Source: Thermoleophilia bacterium (GTDB lineage Bacteria > Actinomycetota > Thermoleophilia > Solirubrobacterales > 70-9). Taken from it: DNA of 64,000 nucleotides. Shown here in pieces: positions 13,571 to 20,347 of the stretch. The stretch is from contig JAENWT010000016.1 in assembly GCA_016650125.1 (NCBI GenBank), positions 1-64,000 on the forward strand. The letters run 5' to 3'. The notes beneath the pieces were generated by a model. The model had not been told where the DNA came from and did no database searches. It saw only the letters and a program-made list of their open reading frames with translations. The position numbers and the translations under genes were made by a program. Position 1 is the stretch's first letter. Every line of letters begins with the position of its first letter.

Positions 13571-14728
13571 TTACTGCAGGACCGGCAGCTCGCGAGCGTT
13601 GGCTCCGAGCTTGGGTGGTGCCGGCGCCGCGGCGGGCACTTCCTGGAGCATCGGCAGCTCGCGTGGCGACATCGCCGCGATGCGCTTGGCGATTTCGATG
13701 ATCGCGGCTCCGGCCGGGGACTCGGGCCGCTCGATTACCAGCGGCCGGCCAACGTCGGCATGCTCACGCAGTTCTTCGGAAAGCGGGATCGTGCCGAGCA
13801 GCGGCACTCCGATGTCGTCGGCCAGCAGCTGGCCACCGCCTTCGCCGAAGATCGAGAAGGTCTCACCGTCCGGCGTGGTGAAGCCGGACATGTTCTCGAT
13901 GACGCCCATGATCTCGAGGTCGACCTTGTTCGCCATCTCGGCCGAGCGGCGGGCGACCGACTGGGCCGCGGGCTGGGGCGTGGTCACGATCGCCAGCTTG
14001 GCCTGGGGCAGTAGCTGGGCCAGGGTCATGGCAATGTCGCCGGTTCCGGGCGGCAGGTCGAGCAGAAGGTAGTCGAGCTCGCCCCAGGCGACGTCCTCGA
14101 GGAACTGCTGGATCGCCTTGTGGAGCATCGGGCCGCGCCAGACGACGGCGGAGTTGTCCTCGACGAAGTAGCCGATCGACATCGTCTTCACGCCCGAAGG
14201 CGCTTCCGGCGGCAGGATCTTCCGCTCGCCGTTGACATCGGGCTTGACGTCGATTCCCAGCATGCGCGGGATCGAGTAGCCGTAGACGTCGCAGTCGAGG
14301 GCGCCGGCCTTGAGGCCCTGGGCCTGGAGCGCGGCGGCGAGGTTGGAGGTCATCGTCGATTTGCCGACGCCGCCCTTGCCGGAAGCGACGCAGATCACGT
14401 TGTTGACCTGGGCGAGAGCGCCCTGGGGCAGCTTGCCGCGGCCGAGGGTCTGCTGGAGGGCGCCCTTCTCTTCGTCGGAGAGGACGTCGAAGCCGACGCC
14501 GACCTTGGTCACGCCTTCGATTGAGCTGACCTGGGTGGTCACAGCGTCCTGGAAATGGGAGCGGATCGGGCAGCCGGCCGTGGTCAGGGAGACGGTGACA
14601 TCGATCTGGCCATCAGGCTTGATGTCGATCGAACGGACCATGCCGAGCTCGACGATGTTCCGCCGGAGTTCGGGGTCGATTACAGCGGTGAGCTTCTCGG
14701 TTACCTGTGCTTCGGAGGGGAGGGACAT
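13571..14728 (-). CDS. mrp: Mrp/ApbC-type Fe-S cluster carrier ATPase
   Basis: 385 residues: an N-terminal MIP18/DUF59 domain (~5-85, with TTAGCPI) followed by a P-loop NTPase with the deviant Walker A GKGGVGKST at 117-125 and LLLDLPPGTGD. Mrp/NBP35 proteins carry Fe-S clusters to apoproteins in the cytoplasm. The CxxC usually found after ENMS is missing (ENMSGFTTPDGE), which I recall as common in actinobacterial Mrp, so this is probably not a defect. It lies alone between an exported hydrolase and divergently read Ig-like genes. Confidence 0.93.
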   Translation of the reverse strand: MSLPSEAQVTEKLTAVIDPELRRNIVELGMVRSIDIKPDGQIDVTVSLTTAGCPIRSHFQDAVTTQVSSIEGVTKVGVGFDVLSDEEKGALQQTLGRGKLPQGALAQVNNVICVASGKGGVGKSTMTSNLAAALQAQGLKAGALDCDVYGYSIPRMLGIDVKPDVNGERKILPPEAPSGVKTMSIGYFVEDNSAVVWRGPMLHKAIQQFLEDVAWGELDYLLLDLPPGTGDIAMTLAQLLPQAKLAIVTTPQPAAQSVARRSAEMANKVDLEIMGVIENMSGFTTPDGETFSIFGEGGGQLLADDIGVPLLGTIPLSEELREHADVGRPLVIERPESPAGAAIIEIAKRIAAMSPRELPMLQEVPAAAPAPPKLGANARELPVLQ

Positions 14729-14810
14729 GCCTCAATTCTGGCATACGGGGGGAGAGATTCCCCGATCCGGCTCCTTAGGCAGTCAGATGCCACTACCCGA
14801 GGAGTCGAAG

Positions 14811-16994
14811 ATGCGCCGAAAGACAGCCGTCATCCTTTCGCTGGTCCTGTTCTGTGCGGCCGGTTTCGCGGCTCCTGGAGGCGGTCTGGCCGCGCGCTTC
14901 ACCGTGACCCAATGCGGCTGGCACGTCGGCCATGACGCCTCGTGGGCCGACACCAGTGCCGGCAAGTTCACCCGCAGCTCATTCTGCCAGCCGCCGGCTT
15001 CGGCCGATTCGTTCGATGGTGTCCACCTGAACAGTGAAACCAGGGCCTCGGCCGACGTCGTCGCCGGCACCCGGTATGCCCGCTGGCGCTGGCAGGCACC
15101 GGCCGGCACCGGGATCGTGACAATTCACGGCCAGCGCTGGCAGGTGCTGAAGGACGGCTTCCAGCACCGGATCGGTTCGGCCACCACGAACGGCACCTTC
15201 GATCCGTTTCTCGATCTGGATGAGACGGATCTCGTCAAGAGGGACTTCGCGGCTTCGTTCTCTCCTTTTGCTTCCGCAGTCGAATCCCGGCTGCGCTGCG
15301 GCAAGGCCGAAGACAAGTTCTGCTCGGCCGGGCAGGGATCGCTGGCCGGGGTCCGTGGACTGACCATCACGGTCGACGATTCGCAGATGCCGGCCACTTC
15401 GATCAGCGGCCGGCTGACCGGCAGCGCCTGGCTGCGCGGTCCACAGGCCCTGAGCTTCTCTTCGGCCGACGTCGGGTCGGGGCTGCGTTACGGCCAGACC
15501 CTGGTCGACGGGTCGGTCCGGGCCCAGACCGAGCATTCCTGCGGCAAAGAACTGATCGCCGGGCAGTGGCGCGGCACCCGGATGCGGCCCTGCTCTCTCT
15601 CGGCCGGCGGCAGTCACAGCATCTCCACATCGAGCCTCAGCGACGGCCCGCACCGGATGCGGCAATGCGCGATCGATTTCGCCGGCAACAGCGGCTGTCT
15701 GGCTGACCGGACAATTCACACCGACAACACGGCTCCGGCCGCGCCCCGGCAGTTGAGCGTGGCCGGCGGCGAAGAGTGGCGGCGGAGCAACGGCTTCGAC
15801 CTGTCCTGGCAGAACCCGGACCAGGGGGTTGCGGCCCCGATCGTGGTCTCGCGTTACCGGGTCATCGGGGCCGGCCGCTTCGACTCGGGGCCGGTATCAG
15901 TGCTCGGCTCGGGGGCTCTCCAGCGTGTGCTTGTTCCGGCGGCTGGTGAATACCGGGTGTCGGTCTGGCTGATCGACGCGGCCGGCAACGAGAACCCTGC
16001 CGCGGTCGCCGATACGACGGTCAGGCTCGATGACGTCGCGCCTTCGGCCTACTTCCTCGAACCTGACGCCGACCGGCCGGAGCACCTGCGTGTCCCGGTC
16101 TCCGACTACCACTCGGGCGTGGCCGGTGGCACCATCTCCTACCGGCAACAGGGCAGCGGCTCGTGGCATCGATTGGCGACCGAATACGGCGCCGGGGGCC
16201 AAGTGCTCGAGGCCGATTTTCCTTCCGAGGACGTTTCTCCCGGCATCTATGAATTCGAAGCTCGCATTCTCGACCGGGCCGGCAACGGTTTCGTGACCGG
16301 TCGGCGCGGCAACGGTTCCCCGCTGACCCTGCGGGCGCCGCTGAAGGACACGACCTCGCTCACGGCCAGACTGCGCTGGAAGCGCCGCAGCGGGCTGGCA
16401 CTCAAGATCCCCTATGGCGAGACGGCCCGGATCAGCGGCCGGCTGACCGGAAATGGCGGTCAGGCTCTTGTCGGACAGCGGATCCGGGTGGTTCAGGCAC
16501 CGGCCTTCGGCGCCCGCGCGGCCGGATCGACTATCTGGGCGACAACCGGCCGTGACGGATACTTCTCGGCCGTATTGTCGCGCGGCACCACACGTCGGAT
16601 CTCGGTCGGGTTCGTTGGCAGCCCGCGGCTGATGGCGGCGAACGCCGGACCGCTCGAGCTGAGGGTCAAAGGCTCGCTCTCCCTTCGGGCGGCGCCGCGG
16701 CAACTGAAGACCGGCCAGAAGCTCCGGCTGAGTGGCCGGGTTCAGTCGCGGTGGGCCCGGCGTCCCGGACGGGGGAGCCTGGTCGCGATCCAGTACCTCG
16801 AGCAGGCGTCCGGCAAGTGGCGCCCGGTGCTGGTGACCAGGGCCGGGCCGCACGGCAACTTTCAAGCCGGTTACCGCTTCCGGTACATCACGGGCTCGGC
16901 CCGGATCCACTTACGTGCGGTTCTTTTGCCATCGCAGTTCTTCCCGTTCGATTCGGCGGCTTCGAAGGCGATCAAGGTCGAGGTGGAGGGATGA
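14811..16994 (+). CDS. large secreted Ig/FN3-like repeat protein
   Basis: 727 residues with an ideal signal peptide (MRRKTAVILSLVLFCAAGFA). The remainder is beta-rich: a Cys-containing N-domain (~25-190), then Ig/FN3-like segments marked by TDNTAPAAPRQLSV, RLDDVAPSAYF and arginine-rich strands near the end. GAGGAG sits 7 nt before the ATG at 14811, so the long upstream open frame is not used. It overlaps the next, similar gene by ATGA. No catalytic motif is seen; a cell-surface or matrix role is likely. The family name is unknown to me, though such proteins are common in soil Thermoleophilia. Confidence 0.75.
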   Translation: MRRKTAVILSLVLFCAAGFAAPGGGLAARFTVTQCGWHVGHDASWADTSAGKFTRSSFCQPPASADSFDGVHLNSETRASADVVAGTRYARWRWQAPAGTGIVTIHGQRWQVLKDGFQHRIGSATTNGTFDPFLDLDETDLVKRDFAASFSPFASAVESRLRCGKAEDKFCSAGQGSLAGVRGLTITVDDSQMPATSISGRLTGSAWLRGPQALSFSSADVGSGLRYGQTLVDGSVRAQTEHSCGKELIAGQWRGTRMRPCSLSAGGSHSISTSSLSDGPHRMRQCAIDFAGNSGCLADRTIHTDNTAPAAPRQLSVAGGEEWRRSNGFDLSWQNPDQGVAAPIVVSRYRVIGAGRFDSGPVSVLGSGALQRVLVPAAGEYRVSVWLIDAAGNENPAAVADTTVRLDDVAPSAYFLEPDADRPEHLRVPVSDYHSGVAGGTISYRQQGSGSWHRLATEYGAGGQVLEADFPSEDVSPGIYEFEARILDRAGNGFVTGRRGNGSPLTLRAPLKDTTSLTARLRWKRRSGLALKIPYGETARISGRLTGNGGQALVGQRIRVVQAPAFGARAAGSTIWATTGRDGYFSAVLSRGTTRRISVGFVGSPRLMAANAGPLELRVKGSLSLRAAPRQLKTGQKLRLSGRVQSRWARRPGRGSLVAIQYLEQASGKWRPVLVTRAGPHGNFQAGYRFRYITGSARIHLRAVLLPSQFFPFDSAASKAIKVEVEG

Positions 16995-17971
16995 AACGGC
17001 GAATTGTCATCGCACTCGCCCTGGTGATCGGCCTGGCCGGTTACATCTGGGCGGCACCTCCCGCCGGAGCAGCCGGCTACACGGTCAAGACCTGCCAGTC
17101 GGTCTCTGGCGCGGGGGTCGGCCCGGTGCCGCTCAACGTCAGTACGGGTGGCTTCGCGGCCGAAACCGGCTGTCATCTCGGATCCGGCGGCCAGATCGGC
17201 TATCGGCTCCAGCCGGTCAACCAGGGATCGGGACAGCGGGCGAGCCGCGAGCAGTGGGCCGGTCTCCAGTGGCCGGTCCCGTCCGGGGTCAGCCTGTCGC
17301 GGGCATGGGCGGAGCTGGGCGGCACGTCCGAGAACGGATCGGGTTCAGGCTTTGGCACCAATACCGAGCCGTGGATGTTCCGGACCTTTGGACTCGGCTT
17401 CAGCGGCATCAACCTCTTCGCGGCCCGCTTCTCGGTGCCCAACAATTCGAACTGGTTCAGACCTTCCGATGCTCCCGGTCTCTACGGCTGGTACTGGGGC
17501 AACGAGTCCGGCGGGCTCGGCACGCCGGCCCAATGGGACGGCGGCCGGCCCTATTCCTTCGACCAAGCGACCGGGCTCTTCAGCGAGACCCTGTTTTCCG
17601 GGTGGGCGACTTCACAGATCGGCGCGACCGGGGTCGCTCCGGCGCTCACGGACGAGGTGCCGGAGGGCCCCTACTCGGCCTACCGCGTGGAGCTGCGCTG
17701 CGCCGAAGCCCACTGCGAGTCCGAGGGCTTCACCTTCGTGCAGCTTCAGCACCTGAACCTCGTCATGAACGACCCGCAGCCGCCGACCGGGGTGACCGCC
17801 CAGCCCGAGGCCGGCGTGGCCGGAAGTCCCGGGGCACGGCTGCTCGCCGGTGAATGGCTGAGCGGCGGACGGGTGCCGGTCAAGTGGAACGCCACCGACG
17901 CGGGCACCGGCATTTCCGGGGCGCGGCTGGTGGTCTCCCCGGGACCGACTGGAACCCTCACCGGGGGGTGA
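16991..17971 (+). CDS. 5' part of a frameshifted secreted Ig-like protein
   Basis: 326 residues with a signal peptide (MKRRIVIALALVIGLAGYIW) and an N-domain resembling that of the preceding gene (YTVKTCQSV), then the start of an Ig-like region (PQPPTGVTAQPEAG). It ends abruptly at TGA 17969-17971 directly after a run of six G (17963-17968). The neighbouring frame continues the same protein (VTCAGG...). One more G would join the two into a product of about 850 residues. This is a real disruption, a sequencing error in the homopolymer, or slippage during expression. The start overlaps the upstream stop (ATGA). Confidence 0.75.
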   Translation: MKRRIVIALALVIGLAGYIWAAPPAGAAGYTVKTCQSVSGAGVGPVPLNVSTGGFAAETGCHLGSGGQIGYRLQPVNQGSGQRASREQWAGLQWPVPSGVSLSRAWAELGGTSENGSGSGFGTNTEPWMFRTFGLGFSGINLFAARFSVPNNSNWFRPSDAPGLYGWYWGNESGGLGTPAQWDGGRPYSFDQATGLFSETLFSGWATSQIGATGVAPALTDEVPEGPYSAYRVELRCAEAHCESEGFTFVQLQHLNLVMNDPQPPTGVTAQPEAGVAGSPGARLLAGEWLSGGRVPVKWNATDAGTGISGARLVVSPGPTGTLTGG

Positions 17972-19545
17972 CCTGTGCCGGCGGCCGGCCCGGCCAGGTC
18001 CGGACCTCTTTCCAGCCTTGCCCGGCCTCCGGCTCCGGCACGATCAGCCTTGACCTGGGGCAGGCCCCGCAGGGCCAAAGCACGGTCACGGCCTGTGCTG
18101 AAGATGGCGTGGCCCAGCGCACCTGCAGTGCCGGCATCAACGTGCGGCGGGACTCGATCGCTCCGGTGATCGACGCGCCCGGCATGAAACTGACCCGGGG
18201 CGGCGGGCCGGGCTTCACGCTCAGCCTCGCCAACCCGGATGTATCGGGAATCGCCGCGGGCTCGGTCTCGCCGCAGGCCGGACTGACTTTCACGGTCGAG
18301 AAGCGGGTCGGATCCGAGTTCGAGAACGTGGTTGCTTCCCGGACCGTCGACGTCTCGGCGCAGGGTGCGGCCCCGGTGATTTTGGTTTCAGGTATCGGGC
18401 TCGAAGGCGATGGCCTCTACCGGGTCTGCGCCCGGCTGCGGGATGCGGCCGGCAACTCTCCGGCGGGTCTCGCCTGTACGAACCTGACCGTCGACGATGC
18501 CTTGCCCGATACGACGATCGTCTCCGGTCCGTCCTCGATGACCGGGGACCCGGTCGCCCCCTTCGTCTACACCTCGGACCGGCCGGCCGACTCTGGTTAC
18601 GAATGCCGCATCGACGACGGTGACTGGACCGGCTGTCCCCGGCCCTCGGCTGTCGATCCGTTCGAAGTGGTTTTGCCGAACGATGGCACCGCTGACGGCG
18701 AGCACGTCTTCGAGGTCCGCGCCTGGCTGCCGTCTGGCACCAGCGGTGGCGGACGGCGGGTCGACCCGACCCCGGCCGGGTGGCGCTGGACGCTAGACTC
18801 GACCCCGCCGGACACAGAGATCGTCTCCGGTCCGCCACCGGTGGCTTCGGAGAACGTCACTTTCACCTTCCGTTCGAACGAGCCGGGGACCTTCGAGTGC
18901 CAGATCGAGGGTGACACCTGGACCCCTTGCACCTCGCCGCGGAGTTACGTCGGTCTCGCGGCCGGCGATCATATTTTCCGCGTGCGGGCGATCGACCGGG
19001 TGGGTCTGGTCGACCCGACTCCGGCCGAGCGTGAGTTCACGGTTGTCCCGACCCCTCCGGTGGTCGAAGTCGTCGAGAAGCCGGTGCTCGTCCCCGTGCC
19101 ATCGCGAAAGTACTGCGCCTTGACCGGCTTCACGATCCGGCCGGTCTCCCACGGTATCCAGGCGACCATCAGCGCTTCGCGCTATTCCCGGTTCGTTCGG
19201 ATCCAGTTCTTCCGGGACACGCCGGCGGTCCGCCGGATCCTCGACCAGGGGACCTACCGGGAGCTGCGAATGCACACCCCGACCGGACCGGTCCTGACCC
19301 TGAAGCGCAAGGCGGTCCGCAACCAGCGCCGCGCCTATTCCTTCCCCGAGGTCAACCTGAGGACGATCCCCGAGTGGTACCGCTTCCGTGGTCAGAGCCT
19401 GATCGCGGTGCCGCGGGTCTCCAACGAGTGGAACCGCTGCGTGGTCCGTTACCGGCAGCAGCTGAAGCGAGACGTCACCGAGATTCCCCTGTGGAAGGGG
19501 CGCTGGGGCATCGATGGCCGCTACCGCCTGAAGCGCCAACCCTGA
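17968..19545 (+). CDS. 3' part of the frameshifted secreted Ig-like protein
   Basis: About 525 residues continuing the preceding frame without a signal peptide of its own. Successive Ig-like modules are marked by VRRDSIAPVIDAPG, NLTVDDALPDTTIVSGPSS, WTLDSTPPDTEIVSGPPP and a basic C-terminal domain with paired Cys. The TPPDT-I-SGP pattern is that of bacterial Ig-like repeats in exported adhesin-type proteins. A GTG at 17968 overlaps the upstream stop and could restart translation, but an exported beta protein without signal peptide would be of little use, which favours a single split gene. A strong terminator follows at 19555. Confidence 0.7.
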   Translation: MTCAGGRPGQVRTSFQPCPASGSGTISLDLGQAPQGQSTVTACAEDGVAQRTCSAGINVRRDSIAPVIDAPGMKLTRGGGPGFTLSLANPDVSGIAAGSVSPQAGLTFTVEKRVGSEFENVVASRTVDVSAQGAAPVILVSGIGLEGDGLYRVCARLRDAAGNSPAGLACTNLTVDDALPDTTIVSGPSSMTGDPVAPFVYTSDRPADSGYECRIDDGDWTGCPRPSAVDPFEVVLPNDGTADGEHVFEVRAWLPSGTSGGGRRVDPTPAGWRWTLDSTPPDTEIVSGPPPVASENVTFTFRSNEPGTFECQIEGDTWTPCTSPRSYVGLAAGDHIFRVRAIDRVGLVDPTPAEREFTVVPTPPVVEVVEKPVLVPVPSRKYCALTGFTIRPVSHGIQATISASRYSRFVRIQFFRDTPAVRRILDQGTYRELRMHTPTGPVLTLKRKAVRNQRRAYSFPEVNLRTIPEWYRFRGQSLIAVPRVSNEWNRCVVRYRQQLKRDVTEIPLWKGRWGIDGRYRLKRQP

Positions 19546-19554
19546 AAGGGAAAA

Positions 19555-19593
19555 TCACAGACCGGCCCGGCCAGAAGCCGGGCCGGTCTGTGA
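19555..19593. terminator. strong bidirectional stem-loop
   Basis: TCACAGACCGGCCCGG (19555-19570) pairs perfectly over 16 bp with 19578-19593 around a 7-nt loop. It lies 9 nt past the Ig-like stop and 9 nt past the stop of the small minus-strand gene, so it can end both converging transcripts. Confidence 0.85.
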
Positions 19594-19602
19594 GGCGGTG
19601 AC

Positions 19603-19737
19603 CTAGAGTCCGAAGACCCCGATCAGCACGGGTAGCGCAATCGCTGTCCCGGCGATACCACCGGCCACGTAGGCCAACACGGCGCTGACGCCGGTCGGTT
19701 CCACCACGGGGTTCACTACTTGTGAGTTCAGATCCAT
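19603..19737 (-). CDS. 44-residue membrane peptide under a c-di-AMP riboswitch
   Basis: A short gene starting ATG at 19737 with a near-ideal ribosome site (AAGGAGG, 19744-19750) 6 nt before it. The product begins MDLNSQVVNPVVEPTGVSAV and continues as a single hydrophobic segment (~19-44: glycine/alanine/valine rich, no charge), ending at the lipid-like tail VFGL. It is the only gene between the riboswitch and the terminator, so it must be what the riboswitch controls unless the RNA itself acts. I do not recognise a family. A small membrane regulator of an osmotic or cell-wall process would fit c-di-AMP control, but that is speculation. Confidence 0.75.
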   Translation of the reverse strand: MDLNSQVVNPVVEPTGVSAVLAYVAGGIAGTAIALPVLIGVFGL

Positions 19738-19751
19738 TTGGTACCTCCTTC

Positions 19752-19905
19752 TTCGTAAGGCCTACGGGGTTAGCTGACGGGCTCGCGCTGAAGAAGCTGC
19801 GCTACGGACAAAAGCTGTCCGATTCGCCCCCGGAATCCAACTGCAGGCGGATTCCAATGGGTCCCCCGATCCGGCACATGAAGAACCGGATTCGGCAGTG
19901 TCTGA
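19752..19905 (-). promoter_or_regulatory. cyclic di-AMP riboswitch (ydaO-yuaA type)
   Basis: Read on the minus strand, this stretch shows the conserved blocks of the ydaO c-di-AMP aptamer in order: GCCGAATCCGG (19896-19886), CGGGGGACCCA, GGGGGCGAATCGG, a variable hairpin, then GAGCCCGTCAGCTAACCCCG and TAGGC. Those blocks are known to form the two ligand pockets and the pseudoknot. The 3' end lies directly before the AAGGAGG ribosome site of the 44-residue gene, so control may act on translation or by early termination. In other actinobacteria such elements precede cell-wall hydrolase (rpf) and transport genes. Confidence 0.92.
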
Positions 19906-19966
19906 ACAAAATCGATACTAGAGAGTCGAAGTGCCATACATCCGACACACGTCACACAACTCCGGT

Positions 19967-20347
19967 TTATGGCCCGAACTTCTCGTTACACCTGACCAGG
20001 CGGTTGATGTTCTGGTTCGAGTTCTGAACGCATTTCAGGAGCCGCTGCTGATTGAAGCCCGCGACGTTCGTCTTGCCGTTGCTGGTGATCACGACCGACT
20101 TGGTCTTGCCCGGGTGGTTCGCCTGATTCAGGGCCTGGTTCATCTGCTTCATCGCGTTCTTGTACGACTCGTCGTTCTGAACGTTGAAGCTATCGGTGAT
20201 GTTGTTGCTGAAATCGCTGGCGCTCCTGATGCCGACCTCGGTCGTGTGCAGCACCGGTTTGATGATGAACAGGTAGACCAGCGCCAGAGTCGCGAACAGG
20301 ACCACCAGGCGGACTACGGTGTTCACAAGCGTTCCCCCGAAGTTCAT
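19967..20347 (-). CDS. small membrane-anchored protein of unknown function
   Basis: 126 residues: one N-terminal transmembrane helix (~8-30, VVRLVVLFATLALVYLFIIK), then an outward or inward soluble part rich in Asn, Gln and Lys with two Cys near the end (CVQNSN, RCNEKF) that could form a disulfide if outside. No family is recognised. It is divergent from the acyl-CoA dehydrogenase gene, with only 49 nt between starts, and its transcript would lead into the riboswitch region. Asparagine/glutamine richness is unlike the neighbouring enzymes. Confidence 0.6.
   Translation of the reverse strand: MNFGGTLVNTVVRLVVLFATLALVYLFIIKPVLHTTEVGIRSASDFSNNITDSFNVQNDESYKNAMKQMNQALNQANHPGKTKSVVITSNGKTNVAGFNQQRLLKCVQNSNQNINRLVRCNEKFGP

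What the first reader, a model, noticed from the sequence alone, without database searches (positions are those of the whole stretch)
19603..19905. c-di-AMP riboswitch controlling only a 44-residue membrane peptide
The minus strand shows all conserved blocks of a ydaO-type c-di-AMP aptamer (GCCGAATCC, CGGGGGACCCA, GGGGGCGAATC, CCCGTCAGCTAACCCCG). Its 3' end leads straight into AAGGAGG and the ATG of a 44-codon gene ending before a strong terminator. Known actinobacterial targets are cell-wall hydrolases and transporters. A riboswitch whose sole output is a tiny hydrophobic peptide would be a new kind of c-di-AMP effector. The peptide was too short for ordinary gene finding.
Basis: partly seen in the sequence, partly recalled or inferred. 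Interest (0 to 1): 0.88.

Follow-up and report, generated by a model that had tools for sequence, protein, structure and literature searches.

The report
c-di-AMP riboswitch controlling a tiny peptide
In a group of actinobacteria, an RNA switch that senses the messenger c-di-AMP sits directly in front of a conserved 37-48-residue membrane peptide and, in the window's genus, nothing else, adding a kind of target not found in the literature searched to a regulon otherwise made of cell-wall enzymes.

Summary
The minus strand at 19744-19907 is a full-length RF00379 (ydaO/c-di-AMP) aptamer, 80.2 bits against a cut-off of 38. Six bases on, with a strong Shine-Dalgarno (SD), starts a 44-codon ORF (19737-19603), followed by an 18-bp terminator hairpin and a convergent gene.

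The ORF is a real gene. Ten of 18 congeneric genomes carry the same 44-codon peptide directly behind an aptamer, under purifying selection. In five congeners the same site lacks aptamer and peptide together. Other single-helix peptides (37-48 aa) stand in the same place in three other genera of the family. The other five c-di-AMP riboswitches of this genome precede cell-wall enzymes.

The likely mechanism is translational OFF control. A loop-3' pseudoknot, also readable in the crystallised ydaO aptamer and co-varying across about 215 aptamers, overlaps the SD. Low c-di-AMP would release the peptide together with the hydrolases. What the peptide does in the membrane is unknown; a regulatory partner of an envelope protein is my best guess. 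A link to KdpF is not supported.

This is a new variant of a known kind: a known riboswitch class with an unlisted micropeptide target. Ligand binding and translation were not tested.

The parts
19744..19907 (-). c-di-AMP (ydaO/yuaA type) riboswitch aptamer
   Evidence: RF00379, 80.2 bits, E 4.8e-17, full length
19790..19796 (-). loop CUUCUUC, 5' strand of the pseudoknot
   Evidence: pairs perfectly with 19748-19754; the loop/3' pairing co-varies over about 215 related aptamers
19748..19754 (-). GAAGAAG, 3' strand of the pseudoknot, overlapping the SD by 3 bases
19744..19750 (-). Shine-Dalgarno AAGGAGG, 6 bases before the ATG
   Evidence: sequence; GAAGAAGGAGGTA is kept in ten species
19603..19737 (-). 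44-codon gene for a single-helix membrane peptide MDLNSQVVNPVVEPTGVSAVLAYVAGGIAGTAIALPVLIGVFGL
   Evidence: orthologs in ten genomes, all 44 codons; purifying selection; helix 17-42 predicted
19555..19593 (-). intrinsic terminator, 18-bp stem followed by TTTT
   Evidence: hairpins in the same place in orthologous units
19915..19920 (-). candidate -10 box TAGTAT, placing the transcription start about at the first base of the aptamer
   Evidence: sequence; related TANNNT-like boxes at about the same distance in several orthologs; the sigma-70 scan found no full promoter, so inference only

Best explanation
A monocistronic unit (promoter, c-di-AMP aptamer, strong SD, 44-aa membrane peptide, terminator) that belongs to the cell's c-di-AMP cell-wall regulon. 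When c-di-AMP, made by a diadenylate cyclase of the DisA type, is high, the aptamer folds with its loop-3' pseudoknot; the 3' strand of that pseudoknot overlaps the SD, so ribosomes cannot start. When c-di-AMP falls, the pseudoknot opens and the peptide is translated together with the cell-wall hydrolases under sister riboswitches. The peptide inserts as one glycine-rich helix and most likely acts as a small regulatory partner of an envelope protein. Shown by sequence evidence: the unit, its conservation, selection on the peptide, the pseudoknot pairing and its overlap with the SD. Inferred: ligand binding, OFF polarity, translational control here. Guessed: the partner.
For: Aptamer at 80.2 bits. 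The genome holds a diadenylate cyclase, PF02457, 94.9 bits. Ten orthologous 44-codon peptides directly behind aptamers, with differences by codon position 384/261/631 and dN < dS in most pairs; frame score z = 4.0. Aptamer and peptide are absent together from the conserved site between the acyl-CoA dehydrogenase and Ig-like genes in G002, G008, G014, G016 and G017. Same-place 37-48-aa peptides in G019, G026, G033, G035 and G039; a combined profile run over 399 genomes of the class hit otherwise almost only inside long frames; profile-profile probability 76.6 between the genus set and the outside set against about 1 for an unrelated tail-anchored set. Pseudoknot: non-canonical loops pair with their own 3' strand better than with swapped ones, 5.53 against 4.51 bases, best of 500 swaps 4.81; the crystallised ydaO RNA, as printed in PMC5393176, can form the same pairing, CUCCUUCG with CGAAGGAG. 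A related riboswitch in C. glutamicum is a translational OFF switch (PMC9960051). Four of the other five riboswitches of this genome precede genes with Pfam cell-wall matches (one below its cut-off), and the fifth target resembles one of these.
Against: No ligand-binding, transcript or translation data. In the window's aptamer the pseudoknot covers only 3 of the 7 SD bases. In Streptomyces rpfA the same class is reported to act on transcription (PMC10117811). dN is close to or above dS in a few pairs of these very short, divergent sequences. Nothing identifies the peptide's partner. Eight of 18 congeners lack a detectable copy, some perhaps through incomplete assembly, so the peptide is probably dispensable in the genus.
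Confidence: 0.72

Rival explanations
1. The peptide is a small accessory subunit of a potassium or other ion transporter, comparable to KdpF, rather than a cell-wall factor.
For: c-di-AMP governs K+ uptake elsewhere, and a c-di-AMP riboswitch controls kdpFABC with the small KdpF first in the operon (PMC6488665). In G035 a TMEM175-like frame lies convergent to the peptide (named by eye).
Against: KdpA is absent from the window's genome and from 17 of 18 genomes of the genus. No transporter gene is consistently adjacent; neighbours differ between genera. The other riboswitch targets of the genome are cell-wall genes.
Confidence: 0.2
2. The unit is a toxin-like or depolarising hydrophobic peptide, kept silent by c-di-AMP as type I toxins are kept silent by antisense RNA.
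For: A short, single-helix hydrophobic peptide with a strong SD under RNA control, patchily present in the genus.
Against: No known family matched (Pfam, NCBIfam; PHROGs only unnamed families). Conserved chromosomal site and a shared regulator with cell-wall genes; no antisense RNA was looked for beyond Rfam.
Confidence: 0.1
3. A decayed remnant: the signal peptide of a lost riboswitch-controlled hydrolase.
For: Nearly all sister riboswitches precede secreted-looking proteins with N-terminal hydrophobic segments.
Against: Same 44-codon length and sequence-level constraint in ten species; a hairpin directly after the stop; no enzyme remnant; no AxA-type cleavage site or basic n-region visible. 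The longer signal-anchor-like proteins behind aptamers in other families do not match it.
Confidence: 0.04
4. The aptamer acts by transcription attenuation rather than on the SD.
For: Reported for Streptomyces rpfA (PMC10117811) and B. thuringiensis kdp (PMC6488665).
Against: The aptamer ends 6 bases before the ATG, leaving no room for a terminator between aptamer and gene; the scan found only one weak terminator-like site, inside the aptamer.
Confidence: 0.12

Closest known systems
[quoted passage not shown]
   Same: Full-length aptamer above the gathering score, with a loop-3' pairing that is also readable in the crystallised sequence
   Different: Output is a lone 44-aa membrane peptide instead of a hydrolase or transporter
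C. glutamicum nlpC riboswitch (PMC9960051)
   Same: Actinobacterial c-di-AMP riboswitch; translational OFF control supported there, with a proposed CTCC-GGAG pseudoknot at the ribosome binding site
   Different: Target is a cell-wall peptidase; the pairing was only a suggestion there, whereas it co-varies in the present set
kdpFABC riboswitch of B. thuringiensis (PMC6488665)
   Same: A c-di-AMP riboswitch whose first gene encodes a very small membrane protein (KdpF)
   Different: KdpF is in an operon with its transporter; here the peptide stands alone and KdpA is missing. Control there is by transcription termination
rpfA and other hydrolase riboswitches of Streptomyces (PMC10117811)
   Same: Same riboswitch class; the sister riboswitches of this genome have the same type of targets
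   Different: All seven S. coelicolor targets named in that review are cell-wall hydrolases

Membership tests
c-di-AMP riboswitch, RF00379 | Covariance-model score above the gathering threshold over the full model | tested here: met
   80.2 bits against 38, positions 1-134
c-di-AMP riboswitch, RF00379 | Loop-3' pseudoknot of the aptamer | tested here: met
   7 of 7 Watson-Crick pairs in the window; co-variation over about 215 relatives
c-di-AMP riboswitch, RF00379 | Host makes c-di-AMP | tested here: met
   PF02457 diadenylate cyclase, 94.9 bits
c-di-AMP riboswitch, RF00379 | Selective binding of c-di-AMP | not testable with these tools
   Needs in-line probing or calorimetry
Translational OFF riboswitch | SD sequestered in the ligand-bound fold | tested here: inconclusive
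   The pseudoknot strand overlaps 3 of 7 SD bases; no probing
Known actinobacterial c-di-AMP regulon (cell-wall hydrolases) | Target gene encodes a cell-wall enzyme | tested here: not met
   44-aa peptide with no Pfam or NCBIfam family
KdpF | Encoded with KdpA, KdpB and KdpC | tested here: not met
   KdpA absent from the genome
Type I toxin peptide | Toxic on overexpression, silenced by an antisense RNA | not testable with these tools
   No family match; needs an assay

The most novel reading that the evidence does not exclude
A family of stand-alone 37-48-residue membrane micropeptides exists only as the output of c-di-AMP riboswitches and acts as a membrane-embedded regulator that tunes the co-released cell-wall hydrolases, or the envelope machinery they serve, when c-di-AMP falls.
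Probability: 0.4. Interest if true: 0.75.

Novelty: new variant of a known kind. Interest (0 to 1): 0.58.

Why it matters
The c-di-AMP riboswitch targets described for Actinobacteria in the papers read here are almost all cell-wall genes. A conserved micropeptide as the only output would mean that the messenger also controls a small-protein layer of the envelope response, and that such overlooked genes can be found by looking directly behind riboswitches. The same data give comparative evidence that the aptamer's own pseudoknot overlaps or abuts the SD, which makes the open question of how actinobacterial c-di-AMP riboswitches act on translation directly testable.

Tried and rejected
KdpF/KdpFABC partner: KdpA absent. 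Known families for the peptide: none in Pfam or NCBIfam, only unnamed PHROGs at E 0.0013 at best. A PDB profile match to photosystem II repair factor PRF2 (E 6e-4) covers only 26 residues of a glycine-rich helix and is treated as chance. Distant homologs in the class: apart from the known members, hits lay almost all inside much longer frames and were taken as chance. Common origin with the tail-anchored proteins behind aptamers in other families: not supported. Column-wise pair counting of the pseudoknot was dropped because MAFFT did not bring the 3' strands into register; the partner-swap test was used instead. An alignment of mixed orientations was discarded and redone. The papers on the discovery, crystal structure and rpfA mechanism (PMC3830699, PMC4282576, PMC5785216) are not held.

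Full report
What is there. The minus strand at 19907-19744 scores 80.2 bits with the c-di-AMP riboswitch model RF00379 over its full length. The sequence runs straight on into the SD AAGGAGG (19750-19744), six spacer bases and an ATG at 19737. The ORF has 44 codons and ends at 19603. An 18-pair hairpin followed by TTTT lies at 19593-19555, and the next gene, 17854-19545, is convergent. A TAGTAT box at 19920-19915 would put the transcription start at the first base of the aptamer; boxes of similar type occur at about this distance in several orthologs, but the sigma-70 scan found no full promoter, so this is inference.

The small gene is real. A protein search of 101 genomes found ten genomes of the genus, the window's included, with a match from E 1.4e-22 to 2.2e-8 over essentially the whole peptide. 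All ten encode exactly 44 residues and start 38-39 bases after the beginning of the aptamer core CAGCTAACC. Fourteen columns are invariant. Differences by codon position are 384, 261 and 631, and dN is below dS in most pairs. The coding frame scores 7002 against a shuffled mean of 5273, s.d. 436, with none of 1000 shuffles reaching it. Nine of the ten have a stable hairpin directly behind the stop codon; the tenth is cut off by its contig end. Nine related loci were found in named assemblies: MAGs labelled Solirubrobacterales, Thermoleophilia or Actinomycetota.

Aptamer and peptide travel together. In the window's genus the unit sits near an acyl-CoA dehydrogenase gene, with or without a 126-aa membrane-protein gene or an inserted gene between, and faces a convergent Ig-like-domain gene. 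In G002, G008, G014, G016 and G017 these neighbours are present but both aptamer and peptide are missing; in G002 only about 46 bases separate the neighbours.

The association is wider than the genus. In about 215 aptamer loci read from relatives, plus the loci found through the peptide, other short hydrophobic peptides start in the same position: 48 aa in G035 and G039, 40 aa in G019, 37 aa in G033 and 41 aa in G026. Most share a G-x3-G helix with the genus set; hhalign gives probability 76.6, against about 1 for either set with an unrelated tail-anchored set. A combined profile run over 399 genomes of the class recovered members in four genera and otherwise hit almost only inside long frames. 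Common descent of the four groups is likely but not proven. The neighbours differ: a convergent MFS-like frame in G033, a same-strand sulfatase-like frame about 150 bases on in G019, a same-strand frame about 220 bases on in G039 and a convergent TMEM175-like frame in G035 (names by eye). So the claim of a sole output is firm for the window's genus and open for G019 and G039.

The regulon. The genome has six RF00379 hits. Read downstream, the other five precede two RlpA-like proteins (DPBB_1), an M23 peptidase, and two related NlpC/P60-like proteins, one of which gives a sub-threshold Pfam match and the other none. The genome has a diadenylate cyclase. The aptamers of the 101 relatives likewise precede mostly secreted cell-wall proteins, judged by eye, in line with the literature for Actinobacteria (PMC9960051; PMC10117811).

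Mechanism. The loop of the last hairpin before the core reads CUUCUUC (19796-19790) and pairs perfectly with GAAGAAG (19754-19748), whose last three bases are the first three of the SD. In 114 of 215 aptamers the loop contains CUCUUUC and usually faces GAAAGAG; in the other 101 the two sides often change together: CUCCUU/AAGGAG, CUCUUCU/AGAAGAG, CCUUUUC/GAAAAGG, UCACUCG/CGAGUGA and others. For these 101 the longest perfect stem averages 5.53 with the own partner and 4.51 with swapped partners, the best of 500 swaps being 4.81. Swapping does not correct for relatedness. The sequence of the crystallised ydaO aptamer printed in PMC5393176 contains the same pairing, CUCCUUCG with CGAAGGAG, and that paper calls its pseudoknot stable; assigning the pairing to that pseudoknot is my reading. 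In these bacteria the 3' strand of the pseudoknot coincides with or abuts the SD. With the translational OFF behaviour reported for C. glutamicum nlpC, where a similar pseudoknot was suggested, the best reading is that ligand-stabilised folding hides the SD. Transcription attenuation, reported for Streptomyces rpfA, is less likely here because there is no room for a terminator between aptamer and gene.

Function of the peptide. AlphaFold2 gives one helix, residues 17-42, mean pLDDT 79. No Pfam or NCBIfam family matches. A KdpF role in the strict sense is not supported, since KdpA is absent. Release together with hydrolases points to the envelope; a regulatory partner of an envelope protein is the best guess, with an ion-transport accessory and a toxin-like peptide as rivals.

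Verdict. A known riboswitch class with a target type not found in the literature searched here: new variant of a known kind. Limits: no experiment; the main published target tables for this riboswitch are not held here; several genomes are fragmentary MAGs; the survey took the best-scoring hits first, so the frequency of peptide targets is not measured.

Noticed in passing
about 215 RF00379 loci, L001-L036, L067-L166, L191-L270: The loop-3' pseudoknot of the c-di-AMP aptamer co-varies and its 3' strand coincides with or abuts the Shine-Dalgarno sequence, in some cases covering AGGAG entirely.
   Followed up: partly
L084, L088, L117, L142, L144, L250: In other relatives, aptamers precede 73-197-aa proteins with a basic N-terminal part and one hydrophobic segment near the C-terminus (motif RPDRIALWA); in L016 a similar segment is fused to PG-binding- and RlpA-like parts, named by eye.
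   Followed up: partly
window 19967-20347 (-): A 126-aa membrane-anchored protein of no known Pfam family lies just upstream of the aptamer and is weakly conserved (30-44%) in many congeners, also in G002 where the riboswitch unit is missing.
   Followed up: no
L273:7910-8290 (+): A TMEM175-like (potassium channel) frame, named by eye, is convergent with the peptide gene of G035.
   Followed up: no
window 14310-19545 (+): Large secreted-looking proteins in tandem, one with weak bacterial Ig-like matches; the last is unmatched in Pfam and convergent with the peptide gene.
   Followed up: no
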